A stretch of 64,000 nt of DNA from Alphaproteobacteria bacterium (GTDB taxonomy: Bacteria > Pseudomonadota > Alphaproteobacteria > Caedimonadales > UBA1908): the NCBI GenBank assembly GCA_021298595.1, contig JAJTHL010000009.1:1-64000 (forward strand), written 5' to 3'. The position numbers and the translations under genes were made by a program. Below the pieces are notes generated by a model. That model saw only the letters and a list, made by a program, of their open reading frames with translations, was not told where the DNA came from and searched no databases. Positions 6,421 to 64,000 of the stretch are shown here, piece after piece (within the stretch, counting starts at the first letter, position 1; each line of letters begins with the position of its first letter).

Positions 6421-6888
6421 TTAAAAGGGGATTTCATCATCTAGGTTTGCTCCCCCGGACCCATAGGGTCCTTCAAAGCTGGGAGAGCCCGTTTCATAGG
6501 AAGGTTCTGCCAAATGTCGCCCAGACGTGTCACCGCCCTTGGCGTCCAGAAGAGTTAGCTCGCCCTTGTACTTTTGCAAAACTATTTCCGTCGTGTAACG
6601 CTCTTGACCGCTTTGATCGGTCCACTTGCGCGTTTGAAGCTGGCCTTCAAGGTAAACCTTTGTACCTTTGGTTGCATATTTTTCAGCAACTTCTGCCAGT
6701 CGGTCATTAAAAATCACCACGCGGTGCCATTCCGTCCGATCACGCTTTTCGCCTGAATTTCGGTCTTTCCACGACTCTGACGTTGCCACAGAAAGCTGAA
6801 CAATTTTCCCGCCGTCTTGTGTGTGACGCACCTCGGGCTCGCGTCCCAAGTTTCCAACCAAAATCACTTTATTGATGGACCCTGCCAT
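6421..6888 (-). CDS. ssb: Single-stranded DNA-binding protein
   Basis: A 155-residue protein with an N-terminal OB fold ([40 protein letters not shown]) and a low-complexity tail ending in the conserved DDEIPF tip that recruits repair and replication partners. The start at ATG 6888 is set by GGAG six bases upstream and the family N-terminus; the frame is open further upstream but that part is not SSB-like. Position directly before gyrA is common in alphaproteobacteria. It is the first gene of the leftward block, and its promoter should lie between 6889 and 6985. Confidence 0.96.
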
Positions 6889-7025: not shown

Positions 7026-7103
7026 GGCGGGTGTAGCTCAGTTGGTTAGAGCGCCAGTTTGTGGCACTGGAGGTCGCCGGTTCAATCCCGGTCACTCGCC
7101 CCA
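7026..7103 (+). tRNA. tRNA-His (anticodon GTG)
   Basis: A full cloverleaf can be drawn. The acceptor stem pairs GGCGGGTG with CACTCGCC; this includes the extra G-1:C73 pair that marks histidine tRNAs. The D-loop contains AGTTGGTTAGA, the anticodon stem is CCAGT/ACTGG with GTG at 7061-7063, and the T-arm is GCCGG-TTCAATC-CCGGT. The 3' CCA is encoded at 7101-7103. It lies only 9 nt from the end of a convergent gene for an exported unknown protein. Confidence 0.97.
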
Positions 7104-7112
7104 CTCACATTT

Positions 7113-7610
7113 TTATTGTAGTTTTTCTAGAAAATCCCCGCTAAACCACTCTTCGTGTCCCTTTACCCTAAAGACTTTAGCCAGGGCTTCCATCTGGGCC
7201 CTTTTCACAGCCGCTGAGCTCATGGGATCAGTGTCATGCTCCAGGGCAAGAGTAAATTTTTCATGGAGACATTTAATGTGACTGTTTTCACGTTTTGAGG
7301 GAATGCGCATCTCTTGATGCCCAAAGAGCACCCCAAATCCCTCTTCAAAAAGCGCAAAGACGTCGGGATGGGACACGTCTTTAAAAGAGCGGCAGAGCTC
7401 TTCATAAGTCACATATGTTTCCTCAGTTTGAGAGGGGGCCTTTTGGGCGTCTTCGCGTCGCTCTTGCGCTTCAACGGCCAGACGATGACTGCATTGACAA
7501 ACGTGCACCTTTTTTGTGGCCTCCTCGCCCTCATCGGACGCCTGCACGTTCCAGGCTAAAAACAACACCAAAGCCCTTAGCAAACTCTTTAACTTCACTT
7601 TTTCCTCCAT
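7113..7610 (-). CDS. Small exported protein of unknown function, paralogue 1
   Basis: Not recognised. A 165-residue protein starting at ATG 7610 (AGGA six bases upstream) with a signal-peptide-like N-terminus: KVKLKS, then a hydrophobic stretch ending near VQASDE. The mature part is charged. The central block SHPDVFALFEEGFGVLF followed by KRENSHIKCLHEKF is almost the same as in the neighbour at 7760-8185, and both end in a Gly-His-Glu/Lys region and FLEKLQ. Only one Cys (in the shared HI-x-CL motif) is conserved between the two, and this copy has an extra CQC pair before it. The strand is opposite to the tRNA-His gene. Likely periplasmic or secreted; role unknown. Confidence 0.75.
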   Translation of the reverse strand: MEEKVKLKSLLRALVLFLAWNVQASDEGEEATKKVHVCQCSHRLAVEAQERREDAQKAPSQTEETYVTYEELCRSFKDVSHPDVFALFEEGFGVLFGHQEMRIPSKRENSHIKCLHEKFTLALEHDTDPMSSAAVKRAQMEALAKVFRVKGHEEWFSGDFLEKLQ

Positions 7611-7759
7611 TTTTTCCTGCTCTAAATGATACGAATTTCTTTTGTGCTTTCTCTTCTTAATGGACATCGTATCCACCAGTTATAGCATTTTTTTTGGTCA
7701 GATGCATGATTCAACGGTGTGAACAAAGCCAGCGCCTCAGCGTGTTCTACATAAATTAC

Positions 7760-8185
7760 TCATTGTAACTTTTCTAAAAATGCTTCTGTGAATTTCTCTT
7801 TATGTCCTTTTAAATCGAACCTAGCAATTAACTGTATTTTTTGGCACTCCTTCACCTCGTCCGACAGAGTAGGAAACGCCTCGCTTTCAAAAACCGCTCT
7901 AAAGCCATCATAAAGGCACGCGATATGGCTGTTTTCACGTTTTGGTGGCAGTCTACCCTCTTGACTACGAAACAGAAGCCCAAAACCCTCTTCAAAAAGA
8001 GCGTAGACCTGGGGATGAGAAATAGGCTTAAACAGTGCGCATAGCTCGCCCAGTTCCATGTGAGCCTCTTTGTTTTTGAGACGCACGACGACGTCTTCCC
8101 TCGTCCCTTCCCAGTCATTAGACGACGCTATGGCCGTGCTGAGCCAGATGAGCGCCAGAATATTGACGATTGCTTTAATCTTCAT
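7760..8185 (-). CDS. Small exported protein of unknown function, paralogue 2
   Basis: Not recognised. A 141-residue protein starting at ATG 8185 with GGGAG upstream, an N-terminal signal peptide (MKIKAIVNILALIWLSTAIA, likely cleaved before SSND) and a mature domain of about 120 residues. It shares with its downstream neighbour the pattern ELC-x2-FK-x2-SHP-x-V-x-ALFEEGFG-x-LF, then P-x-KRENSHI-x-CL, and the C-terminal end FLEKLQ. The two probably arose by tandem duplication and have since diverged by more than half of their positions. The pair lies between tRNA-His and a divergently transcribed exported hydrolase. Confidence 0.75.
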   Translation of the reverse strand: MKIKAIVNILALIWLSTAIASSNDWEGTREDVVVRLKNKEAHMELGELCALFKPISHPQVYALFEEGFGLLFRSQEGRLPPKRENSHIACLYDGFRAVFESEAFPTLSDEVKECQKIQLIARFDLKGHKEKFTEAFLEKLQ

Positions 8186-8456: not shown

Positions 8457-10274
8457 ATGCAGAATAAAAAATCCATTATCCCTTTTCGCGGACTATTACG
8501 CCGTGTTTTTTTGGCACTTTTCAGTGTCTCAAGCGTGCTAAGTGGTCAATTATTTGCCAGTGACGGGCTTTTGATTGAAGACCCTCCAGAAATCGTGACC
8601 CCCCCTTTATCACCTGAAAACGCTTCTCTTGCCCATCACCTTCGCCCCATATACCCCACTGGAGAGGTACCTGTTGTAGGAGCCAATCTAACTGTTGAGG
8701 ACCCATTGCCCTGGCAAATCCCAACCCTGATTTCTCAAAAAGGGAGCCTTTTACCGACCATAGAGCCGACCATAGAGCTGCCCATAAAAACCATTGAGAT
8801 CCTCACGCCTGTCACAAGCCAAGGTCTTCCTGGGTTAGGTCCTAAATTTTCTTTTGACTCTTGGACTTTTCCCCCGTCCTCCGATCTCCCAGCCACGCTC
8901 TTTCCTCTTTCTCAAAGGGTTTGCTCCTCTAAATCAAGAAACGACCTGTTTGACGAGTTTGCAGAAAATCCCCAATACCGCATGAAAAAAGTAAAAATAG
9001 ATGCCACCATACACGTACCGGACACCTTTACCCCCACGGGTCAATACAAGGCCATGGTCTATTTATATGGAAGTGGTGGACCATCCAAAAGTGAACAATT
9101 CTACATCGATCATTTTAAAAACAAAGGCTTGATCGTTGTTCCCGTTGAATCCAATTTGTCCCGCGCCGGGGGTGACGCTAACAAGGCCTCTTCCTCTGGT
9201 GATCAATTGGGGAAAAACCCAGCCAACCTTGCCCTAGACGCCCTGATCGTCGGCAACATTTTAAAGGGCCACCCCAATGTGAGTGAGGTCATTGCCTTTG
9301 GCTCCTCCTTGGGAGGCGTTGCGTGCACATTTCTTGGTAACAAAGAACTCTGTTCTTTCCTTAATGATCAAGCCAAAAACATCTCAGGTATTTGGTATAA
9401 TAGCACACCCTTTAAGCTCATCTTCCCTGTCTCAGCGCTTCCCGTTTTGCAATCAGAAGACGCCTCAACACCCGATGACTGTCTTATGGTCGGGATCAAC
9501 GGTGCTTATGACCAGTATTGTAACTCTGCACCAGCAGCCCGCTTTTTTTCGAGAGTGCGCCCCTTTTCAGCCTGGCATTTTCTGCCCATGGGCCACTGTC
9601 CCGAATCACAGGATAGCGACTGGGTAGACAGAATTCCCACCAGTGCCATGCACCAACAAGAAGATGGGAAAATTTTCTGTCACTGGGCCGATGTAATTAA
9701 TCGATGCACCATGCATTTTGATCAACCCTATTCTGACTATAGCAAAGTGAATATGCAAACAGGAGGAGGCATGGAGCGCCTCACCCTCAAAACTGTTGGC
9801 ACCGACCCACGTCCCTTAGATCAAATCCCGTCGAAAGATCTTTTCGGGGGGTTGCAAAGTGTTTTGAAACAACGTTACCGGGGCGCCGTGATTTTGCCCG
9901 ATGAAACCCAAGCCCTTCGGGTCGTTGATCTTGTCATGTCTTACGTAAAGAGATTTGCCAAGCCTTGGGAAACGGCAGAGTTTCAAGAAATTGCTCTTTT
10001 AAACGTTCAAGCTAAAATCAAAGCACACAAGGTTTTAAGCGCATACGAGAGTATTTTTACCGCCACCCTGGAAACAGAATCAAAACTTTATGAAATAGGC
10101 GAAAAACTAAGGACCCAAAAAGCGATCCTTGCGGAAAGTAAAGGATTAAGGGAACAGCCTAGTGAGTGGCAAGCTCTTGCAGATGAACAAAAAGAACTTT
10201 TAAAAAAGCATCACGGCCTTTTGGTAGCCACTTTTAAGCCGTTGGTAGATGAAGAAAGGGATGGTCTAAGATAA
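8457..10274 (+). CDS. Exported protein with an alpha/beta-hydrolase-like domain
   Basis: A 605-residue protein with a signal peptide (basic start, hydrophobic LFSVSSVLSGQLFA, then SDG). A Pro-rich linker of about 110 residues follows. The central domain carries a nucleophile-elbow motif G282-S-S284-L-G286, followed later by GINGAYDQYC (candidate acid) and LPMGH380C (candidate base), as in serine hydrolases. The strand before the elbow (VSEVIAFG) fits the fold. The C-terminal 130 residues are helical and charged. No close family is recognised; esterase, lipase or peptidase are possible. ATG 8457 has TAGGAG six bases upstream; GTG 8454 is too close. A bidirectional terminator follows. Confidence 0.7.
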   Translation: MQNKKSIIPFRGLLRRVFLALFSVSSVLSGQLFASDGLLIEDPPEIVTPPLSPENASLAHHLRPIYPTGEVPVVGANLTVEDPLPWQIPTLISQKGSLLPTIEPTIELPIKTIEILTPVTSQGLPGLGPKFSFDSWTFPPSSDLPATLFPLSQRVCSSKSRNDLFDEFAENPQYRMKKVKIDATIHVPDTFTPTGQYKAMVYLYGSGGPSKSEQFYIDHFKNKGLIVVPVESNLSRAGGDANKASSSGDQLGKNPANLALDALIVGNILKGHPNVSEVIAFGSSLGGVACTFLGNKELCSFLNDQAKNISGIWYNSTPFKLIFPVSALPVLQSEDASTPDDCLMVGINGAYDQYCNSAPAARFFSRVRPFSAWHFLPMGHCPESQDSDWVDRIPTSAMHQQEDGKIFCHWADVINRCTMHFDQPYSDYSKVNMQTGGGMERLTLKTVGTDPRPLDQIPSKDLFGGLQSVLKQRYRGAVILPDETQALRVVDLVMSYVKRFAKPWETAEFQEIALLNVQAKIKAHKVLSAYESIFTATLETESKLYEIGEKLRTQKAILAESKGLREQPSEWQALADEQKELLKKHHGLLVATFKPLVDEERDGLR

Positions 10275-16701: not shown

Positions 16702-16830
16702 CTTTTTCCAAGCGCTCTTATTTTAAAAGAGCCAGGTGACCCATTTTTCTTGCACCACACGAATGCTAATCTTTTAGCGAGCCCCAAGAGGGGCTTGATT
16801 TTATCTGCCAATATCGTATTTGATGGGATT

Positions 16831-18143
16831 ATGGAAACATTACATCTGACCGACATTGCGTTAGTTGTGGCAGCCGCCCTTGCGTGCGGTCTTCTTTTTG
16901 AACGCCTCAAACAACCCGCAGTCCTTGGTTACATCTTAGCAGGCATTCTCCTTGGCCCGTCCGTGTTGGGGCTTGTACCCGACCGTGCGCCCGTCGAGGC
17001 GCTGGCCGAACTTGGCATCTTGATGCTGCTTTTCCTTGTTGGGATGGAGCTGGATCTGCGCGCCTTCAAAGAAATGTGGCTTGTGAGCCTTCTGACCACC
17101 CTTTTACAGCTGGGAATCAGCCTTCTTGTCCTTGTGGGTCTCGGGAAGATTTTTTCGCTTCCCCTTGGGCTTTCCATCGTGATTGCGTGCGCCCTTGCCC
17201 TTAGCAGCACGGCCGTTGCCATTAAAATGCTTGAAAACATTAACGAAATGGACTCGCCCACGGGTAGACTCACCATCGGTGTGCTGATTGCGCAAGACCT
17301 TGCCATCGTGCCTATGATCTTGATTTTGAAAGGGTTTGCTGGCGGCGCTATTAGCCTCACCATCTTTGCCAAAGTAGCCTTGGCTGTCGGTCTTTTGGCC
17401 CTTTTGATTTGGTATTTAAGCCGGCGCGAGCGTATTCACTTGCCCCTCATTCAATTGGTCGCTGGCAACCATGATCTGACCCCCCTTGCGGGCTTGCTCT
17501 TCTGCTTTGGTATGGCTGTGATCACGGGTCTTATGGGCTTGTCGGCGGCGTACGGCGCCTTTTTGGGCGGCCTGATCCTTGGCAACACATCCGAGCGTCA
17601 TACCATGACCGAGGCTACAAAACCCATCCAAAGCGTCCTCATGATGGTTTTCTTTCTATCCATCGGTCTTTTGATGGATCTTGGATACATTTGGGATCAC
17701 ATCGTCAAGGTCATGGTGCTGCTCTTGTTCATCACCCTTGGAAAAACAGCCTGAATATCTTCATTTTGCACCTTTTGCGCCAGCCATGGGAGCAAGCCTT
17801 TCTCTCTGGCCTTATCCTGTCCCAGATGGGCGAGTTTGCCTTTTTACTTGTGACGGTGGGCGAGGAAAGCGGCCTTTTAACCGAGGGCGGAAACCGGCTG
17901 ATTGTGTCTTTAGCAGCTTTGTCCCTTGCCATAAGCCCCCTTTGGATGATTGTGGCAAGACGTCTTCACCAGCGCGCGCCGAAAGGAATTCAAACCCTGA
18001 ACCAGCTTGTGATCTTGATTTTTGGGCGCGAGCTTCGCTTTTTATCACGCATGGCCGCAAAATCCCGCGCGTTTTACGGCGGCGCCAAAAAAGAGACCCG
18101 TCTTCTTGAGGATCACAGCCCTCCGCCAAAAGAGGACGCGTGA
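16831..18143 (+). pseudogene. Kef-type cation:proton antiporter, interrupted by a frameshift
   Basis: From ATG 16831 the frame encodes a CPA2-type antiporter: FERLKQPAVLGYILAGILLG, GILMLLFLVGMELD and STAVAIKML are typical. It stops at TGA 17752-17754, but the family sequence resumes in the frame one base over (SLNIFILHLLRQPWEQAF, SGLILSQMGEFAFLL) and runs to 18143. Adding one A to the A-run at 17742-17746 would join the halves into about 437 residues. A C-terminal TrkA-N domain is absent, as in short antiporters. This is a lost gene, a slippage site in a homopolymer, or a read error; the intact downstream coding sequence suggests the change is recent. Confidence 0.85.
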
Positions 18144-31596: not shown

Positions 31597-32256
31597 ATGA
31601 ATATACAACGTTTTGCTTTTATTTTTTCTTTGGGTTTGTGTGCATCTTCTTTTTCACAAGCCACACTTCCTGAAAAAGAAAGTGTCCCTGTTCTTAGGGC
31701 TTTGCCCTCACCCATTGGAGATAATCTTCATACAGAAGTTTATTCCTTCATCAAGGACATCCTTTATAAAGAAGGTGCGATCTTGCCAAAGGATCGCCAA
31801 AAACGCCTCGATCAAGAAATTAGAATTGCACAACGTAAGACAGGTGATAAACCTTTGATGGCGGACGTGGCTGAAGGAGAGCTTGCGCACCTTCTCATCA
31901 TTTTGCGCGATCATCTAAGCTGGTGTCATGAAATTACCCTTTACCAAAAGAACGGTGTGGCCATCGCAACGTCTGGCCCCAAGAAAGACATTGTCTTTAA
32001 TCCAGATCGTGATTTAAACGTGCGTCTTGGTTTTTTAACGCCAGATCCAAAGAAAGATCTCGGCCAAAAAAAACTCACAACGGCTGAAGGGGCCCCCTAT
32101 CTTGAAGTTACCCAAGCTGTCCATTATCATAAAGATAAGAATTACGCCTCTCTTTCAAACACGCTCGAAGAAAAGGGTGCGACCCTCATCGGTTTTGTCA
32201 GCTATCTTGTGGATGAACAAGCCTTCGACGCGGTCTCCAAGCCAGATCAGCCCTAA
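31597..32256 (+). CDS. Exported protein with a Cache/PAS-like sensor region, function unknown
   Basis: A 219-residue protein with a signal peptide (FAFIFSLGLCASSFSQA) and AAGGAG nine bases before the start. No membrane segment follows, so it should be free in the periplasm or secreted. The stretch WCHEITLYQKNGVAIATSG, then GFLTPDPKKDLGQKKL and AHYHKD-like VHYHKDKNYASL, ends with GATLIGFVSYLVDEQAFD; the order of strands (YQKNGVAIA, EVTQAVHYH, GFVSYLV) resembles an extracellular Cache domain, which normally sits on a receptor. No kinase or chemotaxis domain is attached. This is inference from pattern only. Confidence 0.6.
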   Translation: MNIQRFAFIFSLGLCASSFSQATLPEKESVPVLRALPSPIGDNLHTEVYSFIKDILYKEGAILPKDRQKRLDQEIRIAQRKTGDKPLMADVAEGELAHLLIILRDHLSWCHEITLYQKNGVAIATSGPKKDIVFNPDRDLNVRLGFLTPDPKKDLGQKKLTTAEGAPYLEVTQAVHYHKDKNYASLSNTLEEKGATLIGFVSYLVDEQAFDAVSKPDQP

Positions 32257-59858: not shown

Positions 59859-62800
59859 TTAATAAAGAAGCCCCATGGGTCGGCCTACGTTTCGGTAGTG
59901 GTTGGCAAGCTCTTCAAAGAGATCCGCAACGGGGACGTCTCTGACAACATTCATGAGCAACTGCTGATTTCTCATCAAGTAAAAGGCTGGATGGAAATCC
60001 TGGGGTAAGTCTTGGTAGAAATGCCTTTCTTGCATTTGACGCAAAAGTTCACGTGCTTTATGGGGTCGATGCTCATTTGCCCCAAAGTCAAGATAATGCC
60101 CTGGTAGTTCCCCCAGCATTTGTTCTACGGTATAGTTACCATCGATAAAATGCTGCATGAGGTTGGGATTGAGGGCAAGATACACCCCCGCATTAAACCC
60201 TCTGGGCAGACCAAAGTCATCGAGCTCATCTGCTTCCTCGTCCCCGCCAAGGGCGCCCCCTGGTTGAGCAGGTTGGGCCTCCGCGTCCTTATACTTGAGG
60301 TTCAGGCGCCGACCTTGTGCGAGGTAATGCGTTTCTGGGTTAGCGAACTGATCGCGGATCTGCTCTGCAAAATCGGGATTTAGGCGCAGATACGCTTCGG
60401 CGTCAAAATCAGCTGGCAAATCGGCCATGTCTACCTTGTAAACCCGGCCCTGCGCCTGCCCATGGGCGGCGTAGTGAAGGAGCCCCGCATTGCGTATAAA
60501 AGCCGGCAATGTGTCCCGCACGTCTGGGTTAAGTCGCTCATAGCGATACGCATCAAAATCATCTGGGACGTTGTCAAGATTTATCCTATACGCTTTTCCT
60601 TCGCGCCTGCCATAGGCAAGGTAATGTTCTTCGACCGTTATGTTGTGGTCCATGGTGAAACGGGTGATGTCAGGATTAAGGATTTCATACGCAGCTTCGT
60701 CAAAATCATCTGGCAACTCATCATAGTTCAGTTGATAGATTCTATCTTCGTTTCGACCATTTTCCCGGTAGTGATTGATGGCAGCCTGTAGATTTCCTTT
60801 AACTGCTTCCTCAACATCCGGGTACAATCTAAGGTACTCTTTTACATCAAAGTCATGGGGCACGCCTTCGAGGTTTAGTTTGTAAACTCGGCCTTCAGCC
60901 CGCCCATGGGCGGCGTAGTGAACACGCGCAGCAAAGGGTGAGCGCACGGTTTCTGGCAAGTCTGGGTTAATATCCATATAGTCAAAGCCATCAAAATCAT
61001 CTGGGACATCGTTAAGGTCCACCCTGTAGGCTTTTCCTTCGCGCTTGCCATAGGCAAGGTAGTGTTCGCGGGCGTATAAGCCGTTTTCCTGTATAAGCTG
61101 AGCGATGTCAGGATGGAGAACTTCATAGACAACGTCATCAAAATCAGCGGGCACCTCATCATAGTTTACCTGATAGATTCTGCCTTCGTTTCGACCGTTT
61201 TCCCGGTAGTGATTAATGGCACCCTGGGGATTTTCTTGATACGCTTTCTTAACATCGGGGTAGAGGCGAAAATATTCATCTATATCAAAGTCCTGGGGAA
61301 CACCCTCAAAGTCTAGCTTGTACGGGCGGTTTGCTTTTTGCCCATAAAGGAGAAAGTGTTTTTCTCGTGCCATATAGTCGTCATCATCCAATTGGGGGAT
61401 GATATCTGGGTTTAATCTTACATAAAGACGCGCATCAAAATCTTCCGGCAAATCTTCAAAGTCGATTTTATAGATTCTGCCTTCGTTTTGACCAGAAGTG
61501 CGGTAATGATCAACGGCGCCTTGTAAGTTATTGCCGTACGCAGCCTGAAGATCTGGATAAAGCCGTAGATACTCTCGGACATCAAAGTCAACGGGAACCC
61601 CTGTCAAATTAAGTTTGTAAAGGCGCCCTTCGTTCTTTCCATGGGCAAAATAGTGGTCTGCGTACGCTTGAGGGTCATCGCCTAAGGCTTCCTGCAGCCC
61701 AGGATTTAAATGACGATAGGCCTCGGGATCAAAGTCTCCTGGCAGACCCGCCAGGTTAAGACCCTCTTTATACGGCCTGCGCTCCTTTATACCGTGGTTG
61801 CGGAAATGGTCTGCGTAGGCTTGTAGATCATCCCCGTAAACTTGAACCAGATCTTGGTTCAAGTGGCGATACTGCGCTGGATTAAAATCCCGAGGCAGGC
61901 CAAACACATAGGGGCCCTCCCGGTAGGGCCTTCCGGCGTCGCGTCCCACGTCATGATAATGCCTTGAGATCTCGATCTCGTCCATATCTTGCAGAACATT
62001 TTCCAAATCAGGGTTCAAGCGCCTGTACTCACGGGGGTCAAAATCCAAGGGGTTGCCTAAGCTATGTTGAAGGGCTGCGTTCAATACTAACCGCATCGGC
62101 AAATGTGCGCACTGTGCCATCAGGTAGGGATCGTTCATCATACGCTCCATGGCCGGCAAAACCGCGTCCAACACGCGCTGATCTCTTGCGAGATCTGCAG
62201 CGTCCCTTGGATTTTCCCTAAGCTTTTTTTCATGCTCCACCCGCAAGATGTGTTTCACATCATCCGCGCGGTAGGGCAGTTTTTCAACACCCCCGCGCGC
62301 CGCATAATGGTTTTTTGCAAGGTCAATAAATTCTTGAAAAGTAGGGTCCTCGTCAACCTCTTTTAAGAGGGCATTTTTTCTCATCTTATTAATGTCATCT
62401 TGAATCTGTGGATTCAAGAACCCATAGGCCATGGGATTAAAGTCGGCGGGGATGCCCCTTTCGTCCAGGACAATAGGAGTTTTGGGTGGCTGAGGAAGTG
62501 GCCGGTCTTGCTGGAAATGGGGTTCTAGATTCCTTGCCTTTTCAAAGGCCTCTTCCATGGTCAGGGTTTCAAAACGTTCGGCATAGCGCAAAACCCTTGT
62601 AAGTTTCATGGCGCCCTTGAAACGCTCTGCTGCTTCGCGGCGCGCGCGCACCTGCTCTCTTGTATCTTGAGGCATATCGCGGATCCGCCGGCGCAGTAAT
62701 TCTTCTTGAAAGCCAGGATGATCCTCAAAGCCAGCCGCGGCGTAATGATTTCTTGCAGCGTCCACCATTTGACCCACAGGCAACCGCCCGAACTCTGCCA

Positions 62801-64000
62801 TCAAGTCTGGGTAAAGCATCAGGTAGACAAAGGGGTTAAAGTCCAAAGGAACGCCGAAATCGTCAAAAACAGCCTCAGCAAGGTCGCTGTCAGGCCCATC
62901 TATGCCCCGGATACGATCATGAAAGCCCGTGGACAATCTGTCGTCAGAATCCTCCTCAGACGAGTCTTGTCCTTGTGAATACCCACCTCCTTGATAAGGG
63001 CCGCCTACGATCCTTATCTCCTCATCGTCATCAGAAGATGAGCTGCTGTATCCCCCCTCGTCGTCAGAAGATGAGCTGCTGTCTTGCTCTTCAAACCATT
63101 GACGAAGTCTGTGTTGATCTTCTCTCGACAGCCCCCCCCCTTGGTCACCATCAGAAGATGACGCGGGACCTGCGCTACCAGAAATGTTCAGATCTGCAAA
63201 GTCGCCGATGACTCCAGGCAACGAAACATTGTCCAGTGCTCGATCAAAAACGTGCTCAAGGGTCACGTTTTGAAGAGCTTGCCTTGCCGCTTCGTCGCGA
63301 CTCAAATAGGTCGCAGGATGAAAGTCAACGGGCAGGCCAAGGTGATGGAATTGACCGCTTGTTCTTCTTAAAAGCTCTGCTTCTGTGTAAGGCCTTCTTT
63401 CCATTCGCCCATGATCAATGTAGTGTCGCTTAGCGGTTTCAATGGCTAAGGGAAGTGTTTGTTGACCATAGGCCCTGACAAGATCCGCGTTAAGGGCAAG
63501 ATAAGCAAACGCATTGAAATTTTGGGGGACAGTGCCTGCTTCTTCTTCAGACAAAAAAGTTCTGTAGACGCCCCCATGGGCCAGGTAATCTTGCAACGCC
63601 AAACCATTTATCACATCCGTAAGCGATCGATTTCCAAGTCTTGCTTTGGCTCCTGGATTTAAGCCGATATACAAAAGGGGATCAAAATCCTCGGGTGCGA
63701 CGCCAGCCTCTGGATGCTGCCCGATGCGCACCTGTTCTGTGGTGTGACGGTTTTCTCTAGCGCCATTATCTGCGTAATGGCGTTTTGCCATCTTGAGGGC
63801 TTCATTCAAGGTAGTAGGGCGCCGATTTAAGCCGGTCGTTGAAAACGCGCGCCTTAGATCCTCGTGTTCACTCAGATAGATTGCCGCGTTAAAGCCATGG
63901 GGGACGCGAGATCTTAAATTGACAAATCCTTTTTCTAACTCATCATAAATTGAGTCAGGATTGGTGACCCAGTGATCTTCTGAGACGGTCTTGATTTTGC
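59859..64000 (-). CDS. Giant tandem-repeat protein, 5' end outside the window
   Basis: At least 1379 codons, open to the right edge, so the N-terminus and any signal peptide are not visible; TTG 63809 is not the true start. The sequence is built from about 20 copies of a 45-60-residue repeat: (V/L)P-x-DF(D/N), Y-x2-LNPD(L/I), a variable helix, HY-x4-G-x3-GR-x-Y. Copies near the N-terminus carry longer spacers. Between the first four copies and the rest lies a linker of about 110 residues rich in Ser, Asp, Glu and Gly (SSSSSDDEGGYSSSSSDD). Related shorter repeats are known in bacterial surface and glycosyltransferase-linked proteins. Function unknown; adhesion or scaffolding are guesses. Confidence 0.85.
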   Translation of the reverse strand, partial: KIKTVSEDHWVTNPDSIYDELEKGFVNLRSRVPHGFNAAIYLSEHEDLRRAFSTTGLNRRPTTLNEALKMAKRHYADNGARENRHTTEQVRIGQHPEAGVAPEDFDPLLYIGLNPGAKARLGNRSLTDVINGLALQDYLAHGGVYRTFLSEEEAGTVPQNFNAFAYLALNADLVRAYGQQTLPLAIETAKRHYIDHGRMERRPYTEAELLRRTSGQFHHLGLPVDFHPATYLSRDEAARQALQNVTLEHVFDRALDNVSLPGVIGDFADLNISGSAGPASSSDGDQGGGLSREDQHRLRQWFEEQDSSSSSDDEGGYSSSSSDDDEEIRIVGGPYQGGGYSQGQDSSEEDSDDRLSTGFHDRIRGIDGPDSDLAEAVFDDFGVPLDFNPFVYLMLYPDLMAEFGRLPVGQMVDAARNHYAAAGFEDHPGFQEELLRRRIRDMPQDTREQVRARREAAERFKGAMKLTRVLRYAERFETLTMEEAFEKARNLEPHFQQDRPLPQPPKTPIVLDERGIPADFNPMAYGFLNPQIQDDINKMRKNALLKEVDEDPTFQEFIDLAKNHYAARGGVEKLPYRADDVKHILRVEHEKKLRENPRDAADLARDQRVLDAVLPAMERMMNDPYLMAQCAHLPMRLVLNAALQHSLGNPLDFDPREYRRLNPDLENVLQDMDEIEISRHYHDVGRDAGRPYREGPYVFGLPRDFNPAQYRHLNQDLVQVYGDDLQAYADHFRNHGIKERRPYKEGLNLAGLPGDFDPEAYRHLNPGLQEALGDDPQAYADHYFAHGKNEGRLYKLNLTGVPVDFDVREYLRLYPDLQAAYGNNLQGAVDHYRTSGQNEGRIYKIDFEDLPEDFDARLYVRLNPDIIPQLDDDDYMAREKHFLLYGQKANRPYKLDFEGVPQDFDIDEYFRLYPDVKKAYQENPQGAINHYRENGRNEGRIYQVNYDEVPADFDDVVYEVLHPDIAQLIQENGLYAREHYLAYGKREGKAYRVDLNDVPDDFDGFDYMDINPDLPETVRSPFAARVHYAAHGRAEGRVYKLNLEGVPHDFDVKEYLRLYPDVEEAVKGNLQAAINHYRENGRNEDRIYQLNYDELPDDFDEAAYEILNPDITRFTMDHNITVEEHYLAYGRREGKAYRINLDNVPDDFDAYRYERLNPDVRDTLPAFIRNAGLLHYAAHGQAQGRVYKVDMADLPADFDAEAYLRLNPDFAEQIRDQFANPETHYLAQGRRLNLKYKDAEAQPAQPGGALGGDEEADELDDFGLPRGFNAGVYLALNPNLMQHFIDGNYTVEQMLGELPGHYLDFGANEHRPHKARELLRQMQERHFYQDLPQDFHPAFYLMRNQQLLMNVVRDVPVADLFEELANHYRNVGRPMGLLY
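60436..61315 (-). repeat. Two tandem copies of a three-repeat block (about 438-444 bp) inside the giant gene
   Basis: Within the repeat protein, three successive repeats (types A, B and C) occur as A-B-C-A-B-C. For example TGATAGATTC with its surroundings at 61171 recurs at 60733 (438 bp apart), and the RVYK codons at 60880 recur at 60436 (444 bp). Each type matches its partner better than it matches its neighbours: A has INHYRENGRNE, B has EHYLAYG and EGKAYR, C has HYAAHG. One further A-B-like pair lies before them. Confidence 0.85.
63028..63082 (-). repeat. 33-bp tandem repeat in the acidic Ser/Asp linker
   Basis: The 19-nt string TCAGAAGATGAGCTGCTGT occurs at 63031-63049 and again at 63064-63082, 33 bp apart (11 codons), with a shorter third match near 63153. 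It encodes the repeated Ser-Ser-Ser-Ser-Asp-Asp segments of the linker. Confidence 0.85.

What the first reader, a model, noticed from the sequence alone, without database searches (positions are those of the whole stretch)
7113..8185. Tandem pair of unknown exported proteins next to tRNA-His
Two genes of 165 and 141 residues share a signal-peptide layout, a SHP-x-V-x-ALFEEGFG core, KRENSHI-x-CL and a FLEKLQ end, but have diverged strongly. The core with its charged helices and one conserved Cys is not one that I recognise. Position beside a tRNA and a divergent exported hydrolase marks an accessory insert in an otherwise conserved block.
Basis: partly seen in the sequence, partly recalled or inferred. 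Interest (0 to 1): 0.5.

Follow-up and report, generated by a model that had tools for sequence, protein, structure and literature searches.

The report
Small exported helical proteins of endosymbionts
Two neighbouring genes encode small exported proteins of an unnamed, mostly helical family that turns up, patchily, in one branch of bacteria that appear to live inside other cells; what the proteins do there is not known.

Summary
In detail: two tandem minus-strand genes, B (141 aa) and A (165 aa, more likely 161), share a signal-peptide layout and a core (50% identical over 105 residues). No significant match in Pfam, NCBIfam, PHROGs, PADLOC or the PDB. They are not a recent insert: the sister genome has both at the same place (61% and 63% identical), while eight of eight other genomes of the order keep ssb-gyrA without the pair in the stretches seen. 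Profiles join them to a wider family: 19 copies (one split by frame) found in 16 of 69 genomes of three related orders; class and phylum samples gave no convincing member elsewhere. All ten genomes of the window's order carry ATP/ADP translocases, a mark of energy parasites inside host cells. AlphaFold2 gives B a confident all-helical domain (pLDDT 89, pTM 0.82) without a clear fold match. Best reading: a Sec-exported helical binding protein of an intracellular clade, acting in the envelope or facing the host. The family is well supported; the role is inferred. Modest interest: such bacteria are known to hold many lineage-specific secreted proteins, but this family spans three orders.

The parts
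7113..7598 (-). Gene A, likelier reading: 161 aa from GTG (165 aa from ATG at 7610); exported, N-terminal CxC segment, then the family core with HIKCL and FLEKLQ end
   Evidence: start chosen by Shine-Dalgarno GGAGG and by alignment with G001A
7760..8185 (-). Gene B, 141 aa, exported; family core with HIACL and FLEKLQ end
   Evidence: AlphaFold2 model pLDDT 89, pTM 0.82
8123..8185 (-). Signal peptide of B (residues 1-21, MKIKAIVNILALIWLSTAIAS), cleavage site by the -3/-1 rule (20, 21 or 22 fit)
   Evidence: hydropathy and -3/-1 scan; no trained predictor available
7539..7598 (-). Signal peptide of A (to VQA, residue 24 of the 165-aa reading)
7027..7103 (+). tRNA-His (GTG), convergent with A, 9 bases away
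8457..10274 (+). Divergent exported protein of about 605 aa with a serine-hydrolase-like GSSLGG motif; neighbour, link to A/B unproven
   Evidence: ortholog in G001 73.9% identical; no Pfam or NCBIfam match at E up to 1; motif recognised from memory, not by a tool
6421..6888 (-). ssb, conserved anchor of the block
   Evidence: found in 10 of 10 genomes of the order

Best explanation
A and B are paralogs of a small family of Sec-exported, all-helical, soluble proteins carried by one clade of apparently intracellular (energy-parasitic) alphaproteobacteria. The signal peptide takes the protein across the inner membrane; the mature compact helical domain (about 120 residues) then acts by binding a partner, either in the periplasm or, after a second export step, outside the cell towards the host. 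The duplication that made A and B happened in the window's genus lineage before its two sampled species split, and another tandem pair exists in a different family of the order. Shown by computation: coding, family, distribution in the genomes searched, lifestyle marker in the window's order. Predicted: export signal and fold. Inferred: binding role and host-facing or envelope setting.
For: Export: 18 of 18 aligned members have an N-terminal hydrophobic stretch (12-residue mean above 1.6) with K/R at its start; 17 of 18 have a -3/-1 pattern, though that of G432 lies far downstream. Family: profile A1 found G004 at 2.0e-7; the reverse profile A4, built only from four distant members, ranks all seven copies of G000, G001, G007 and G009 next after G004 in the order, at 1.2e-5 to 0.028, the next being 0.62; hhalign of four genus members against four distant ones gives probability 96%, E 1.8e-9. 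Distribution: 5 of 10, 3 of 17 and 8 of 42 genomes of three orders. RpoB puts the 12 family-bearing genomes that had a usable RpoB on one side of a branch, 99/96. Lifestyle: ATP/ADP translocase in 10 of 10 genomes of the window's order, 0 of 14 controls. Fold. Duplication: the A/B clade excludes the G007 pair with support 100/98. Pace: B and A have the second and third highest dN of nine gene pairs in the block. Setting: a related endosymbiont has 158 signal-peptide proteins, 105 of them uncharacterised and limited to it and one other genome (PMC8163844, passages).
Against: No secretion, expression or binding data for the family in anything I saw. The family was not found in 53 of 69 genomes of the three orders (some of them incomplete, down to 63%), so it seems not needed for the lifestyle. 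No constant neighbourhood in the 9 of 16 bearing genomes whose surroundings I read by eye, apart from a shared secretin-like neighbour in G007 and G009. miaA in the same block has a higher dN (0.302), so the pace is not special to these genes. Translocase was checked only in the window's order, not in the other two. The model of A is weaker (pLDDT 75, N-terminal part below 60), and the five models of B range from 63.8 to 89.2.
Confidence: 0.5

Rival explanations
1. The proteins stay in the periplasm as immunity proteins or inhibitors against a toxin or enzyme of neighbours (type VI immunity-like), which would explain small size, export, tandem copies and patchiness.
For: Tandem pairs in two families of the order, patchy occurrence, helical fold. 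A review says type VI secretion is widespread in Holosporineae, a group that may include these bacteria (PMC11909080, passages).
Against: No Pfam immunity model among the matches at E up to 1 for 18 members; no PADLOC match at E up to 0.1 except one stray cyclase at 0.026 in one member. No effector-like partner recurs beside the genes in the 9 of 16 bearing genomes whose surroundings I read by eye. Type VI genes were not looked for in this genome.
Confidence: 0.2
2. The family is a redox or metal-binding periplasmic protein. Eleven of 11 distant members have a histidine 11 positions before the core cysteine and exactly one CxxC, either central CWxC (4) or C-terminal (7); 6 of 7 members of the window's group have HxxC, and the one that lacks the cysteine lacks the histidine too.
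For: Pattern count; alignment.
Against: A and B themselves have no CxxC. Numbers are small and the sequences related, so the paired loss may be one event. No metal or thiol protein stands out among the fold matches; low-ranked designed zinc proteins and cytochrome b562 variants occur there at Z 2 to 4.6.
Confidence: 0.15
3. Lineage-specific exported proteins without a dedicated role in the host, kept as general envelope or periplasmic factors.
For: Purifying selection on A, no constant neighbourhood in the genomes read, not found in most genomes of the three orders.
Against: Found only within one branch that, at least in the window's order, appears host-bound.
Confidence: 0.15

Closest known systems
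Lineage-specific Sec-signal proteins of Ca. Bodocaedibacter vickermanii (PMC8163844, passages read)
   Same: Uncharacterised proteins with signal peptides in an intracellular alphaproteobacterium, restricted to its lineage
   Different: Those 105 are reported as limited to two genomes; this family spans three orders. I did not compare sequences with them.
Type VI periplasmic immunity proteins of the Tai4 / Rap1a kind (recalled)
   Same: Small, exported, helical, often tandem
   Different: No such profile among the matches of 18 members; no recurring effector partner seen in the neighbourhoods read
Mycoplasma arthritidis mitogen 3kph and mosquito complement inhibitor 6xl7, two of the top three chains in the second look with model B (the other, 8snb, is a sperm microtubule component at Z 4.8)
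   Same: Helical arrangement over 75-81 residues, Z 4.0-4.8, rmsd 3.0-3.5
   Different: Z far below what would mean kinship for helical bundles; 9-11% identity; read as a common arrangement only

Membership tests
The exported helical family defined here | Profile similarity in both directions between the window's pair and the distant group | tested here: met
   hhalign 96%, E 1.8e-9
The exported helical family defined here | N-terminal export signal | tested here: met
   18 of 18 by a simple hydropathy scan, 17 of 18 with a -3/-1 pattern; no trained predictor available
The exported helical family defined here | Cysteine in the xCL/Y motif of the core | tested here: met
   17 of 18 members, both window proteins included
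Distant subgroup of the family | One CxxC, central or C-terminal | tested here: not met
   11 of 11 of the distant group have it; 0 of 7 of the window's group. So A and B belong to the family but not to this subgroup.
Type VI immunity proteins (Tai4, Rap1a; names recalled) | Match to a Pfam immunity profile | tested here: not met
   No such family among matches up to E 1 for 18 members
Type VI immunity proteins (Tai4, Rap1a; names recalled) | Shared fold | tested here: inconclusive
   Not among listed matches; absence from such a list excludes nothing
Bacterial lipoproteins | Lipobox at the end of the signal peptide | tested here: not met
   No match in A, B or the other 16 to the narrow pattern [LVI][ASTVI][GAS]C in the first 30 residues; one of 18 members touches Pfam LPAM_1 at 0.47. 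A and B have no cysteine near the cleavage site.
Secreted host-targeted effector | Delivery into or contact with the host | not testable with these tools
   needs experiment

The most novel reading that the evidence does not exclude
The family is an ancestral host-interaction factor of the whole clade that bears it: a secreted helical protein with a swappable thiol or metal site (central CWxC or C-terminal CxxC, replaced by HxxC in the window's lineage), inherited from the ancestor of three orders of intracellular bacteria and lost or duplicated as hosts changed.
Probability: 0.2. Interest if true: 0.55.

Novelty: new member of a known kind. Interest (0 to 1): 0.33.

Why it matters
In one studied protist symbiont most uncharacterised signal-peptide proteins were limited to two genomes (PMC8163844, passages). 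A family that can be traced by profiles across three orders, with a confidently predicted domain and conserved residues, gives a concrete, small, soluble target for finding out what such bacteria send across their membranes.

Tried and rejected
Recent insertion at the tRNA: rejected, because the sister genome has the same gene order. Phage origin: no related locus in viral contigs (profile A1) and no PHROGs match with A or B at E up to 1; among 18 members only two stray PHROGs at 0.066 and 0.084, one member each. Plasmid origin: no match for one distant member (G259) in the plasmid collection; the other members were not tried. Known domain: with A, DUF2924 0.14 and TMEM61 0.25, B none; over 18 members eight Pfam families, one member each (QIL1 0.0015, Ac81 0.052, PH_17 0.065, HP1451_C 0.11, DUF2924 0.14, TMEM61 0.25, PID_2 0.28, LPAM_1 0.47), all below what I take as real. 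A rescan of G029 and G432 did not show QIL1, so I do not know which member gave it. NCBIfam: none with A and B; five stray matches, one member each, best 0.026. PDB by sequence: none with B; with the family profile one GAPDH at E 1.7; A was not searched alone. Fold: Foldseek with B found nothing at E 0.001 or better in the PDB or among viral models; the second look gave Z at most 4.8 for B and 5.7 for A, which for helical bundles may mean only a common arrangement. The single-sequence scan of genome contigs gave no relative; the scan with A1 gave one locus, L036, which is G001. Weak matches of the single-protein search (G002 at 5e-4, which lies within a 401-aa frame of another gene; the rest at 0.085 to 1.14) were dropped; only G007 at 0.002 was kept, and the profile confirmed it. 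G142 (0.002) was not listed with the fuller profile. G499 (0.0096, 26 profile positions) is taken as chance. G003 (1.07) was not counted. Promoter and terminator scans gave fewer hits than shuffles, so whether B and A form one transcript is open.

I could not name the orders. A review passage says that GTDB-based work divides Holosporales into three orders (PMC11909080), and the three family-bearing orders may be these, but that is inference. A search for the word MCMED brought nothing of use and the taxonomy no such name.

Full report
What is there. The window (G000, contig C25, a 1.72 Mb genome, 97% complete) has two minus-strand genes between tRNA-His/ssb and a divergent exported protein: B at 7760-8185 (141 aa) and A at 7113-7610 (165 aa). 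A likely starts at the GTG at 7598, behind GGAGGAAAAA, giving 161 aa; this lines up with the starts of relatives. The gap from B to A is 161 bases; A ends 9 bases from the tRNA. A and B are 50% identical over 105 residues, and a search of the own genome with A finds only these two.

The locus in relatives. The same-genus genome G001 has both orthologs at the same place and in the same order with tRNA-His, ssb, gyrA and the divergent hydrolase. A is 61.5% and B 63.1% identical to its ortholog; A has dN 0.242 and dN/dS 0.21, B has dN 0.285 with dS saturated. Seven neighbours have dN 0.019 to 0.302; only miaA (0.302) exceeds B and A. In the other 8 of 10 genomes of the order, ssb and gyrA are adjacent, with no family member and no tRNA-His in the stretches fetched; for G009 only about 0.6 kb upstream of ssb was available, for G004 about 1.8 kb.

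The family. No significant match in Pfam, NCBIfam or PHROGs for A and B. Profile A1, which already held the two G007 proteins, found G009 (2.6e-17) and G004 (2.0e-7) besides its own rows. Profile A3 at class level added G329 (8.4e-12), G150 (1.2e-7) and G029 (6.9e-6), and one match at 0.002 (G142) that I did not accept. The reverse test, with four distant members only (A4), re-found all seven copies in G000, G001, G007 and G009 at 1.2e-5 to 0.028, with nothing else below 0.62 except G004, which is in the profile. Profile against profile gives 96% probability, E 1.8e-9. Searching the orders of G329 and G029 gave 3 of 17 and 8 of 42 genomes. In all, 16 of 69 genomes of three orders hold 19 copies, one of them (G431) split over two frames; the three orders were searched with different profiles. 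With the 18-row profile A6 the class sample gave 6 of 385 genomes, all six in these three orders, and the phylum sample 2 of 398: the window's own genome and one 26-position match at 0.0096 that I take as chance.

Who carries it. An RpoB tree of 25 genomes puts the 12 family-bearing rows, with 6 non-bearers (one of them, G015, from none of the three orders), on one side of a branch with support 99/96; the other 7 rows do not bear it. The presence label needs 5 changes on the tree, so the gene is gained or lost repeatedly. ATP/ADP translocase (PF03219) is found in 10 of 10 genomes of the window's order, two copies in the window's own genome, and in 0 of 14 control genomes; the other two orders were not checked. 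That such translocases mark bacteria that take ATP from a host cell is established knowledge (recalled). A review says, in the abstract start and passages I saw, that Holosporales live with eukaryotic hosts, mostly protists, and that GTDB-based work divides them into three orders (PMC11909080); that our three orders are those is plausible but not shown.

History of the pair. In the family tree A with its ortholog (98/97) and B with its ortholog (99/98) form one clade (100/98) that excludes the two G007 copies. So the A/B duplication lies within the window's genus lineage, before its two species split; the G007 pair is probably a separate duplication, but the order of G007a, G007b and G009 is unresolved. 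Gene conversion between neighbours could also produce this picture.

Anatomy. All 18 aligned members have an N-terminal hydrophobic stretch; 17 have a -3/-1 pattern, none the narrow lipobox pattern. The core has a YT-x-EE start, aromatic-rich stretches and a cysteine before Leu/Tyr kept in 17 of 18. The distant group has a histidine 11 positions before that cysteine and exactly one CxxC in 11 of 11, central CWxC in 4 and C-terminal in 7; the window's group has HxxC in 6 of 7 and CxxC in none. AlphaFold2 with four sequences predicts mature B as all-helical, pLDDT 89.2, pTM 0.82, though the five models range from 63.8 to 89.2; mature A gets pLDDT 75.0, pTM 0.63, with the core mostly confident and the N-terminal CxC segment not. 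No fold match of weight.

Surroundings elsewhere. I read the neighbours by eye in 9 of the 16 bearing genomes. They differ from place to place, except within a genus: G007 and G009 both have the gene beside a secretin-like gene. The other 7 were not read.

How it most likely works. Export by Sec and binding of a partner by the helical domain, in the envelope or towards the host. Export is supported by sequence; the place of action and the partner are inference. A related endosymbiont is reported to have 158 signal-peptide proteins, 105 uncharacterised and limited to it and one other genome (PMC8163844, passages), so a family of this sort is expected there; what is less expected is its reach over three orders.

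Not in print? Two full-text searches (listings seen) and passages of two papers showed no description of this family; that is thin evidence, and supplementary tables were not read.

Noticed in passing
window 31597-32256 (+): A second exported orphan, 219 aa, is 33% identical (E 3e-26) to an exported frame between gyrA and coaD in G004 (L077 5127-5720): another small exported family shared within the order.
   Followed up: partly
L027 4228-6102 (-) and 6141-7505 (-): Beside the G004 family member lie an exported protein that looks like RNase III with double-stranded-RNA-binding repeats and an exported phospholipase-D-like protein (read by eye, no profile run).
   Followed up: no
window 8457-10274 (+): Exported protein with a GSSLGG motif, no Pfam or NCBIfam match, 73.9% identical in G001.
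   Followed up: partly
window 16750-18143 (+): The cation-antiporter-like gene is one 464-aa frame in G001 (L016 101-1495) but two overlapping frames in the window: a frameshift or an assembly error.
   Followed up: no
L056/L057 (G431): A family copy split over two frames: decayed gene or sequencing error.
   Followed up: no
window 59859-63809 (-): A 1316-aa open frame near the window end, not examined.
   Followed up: no
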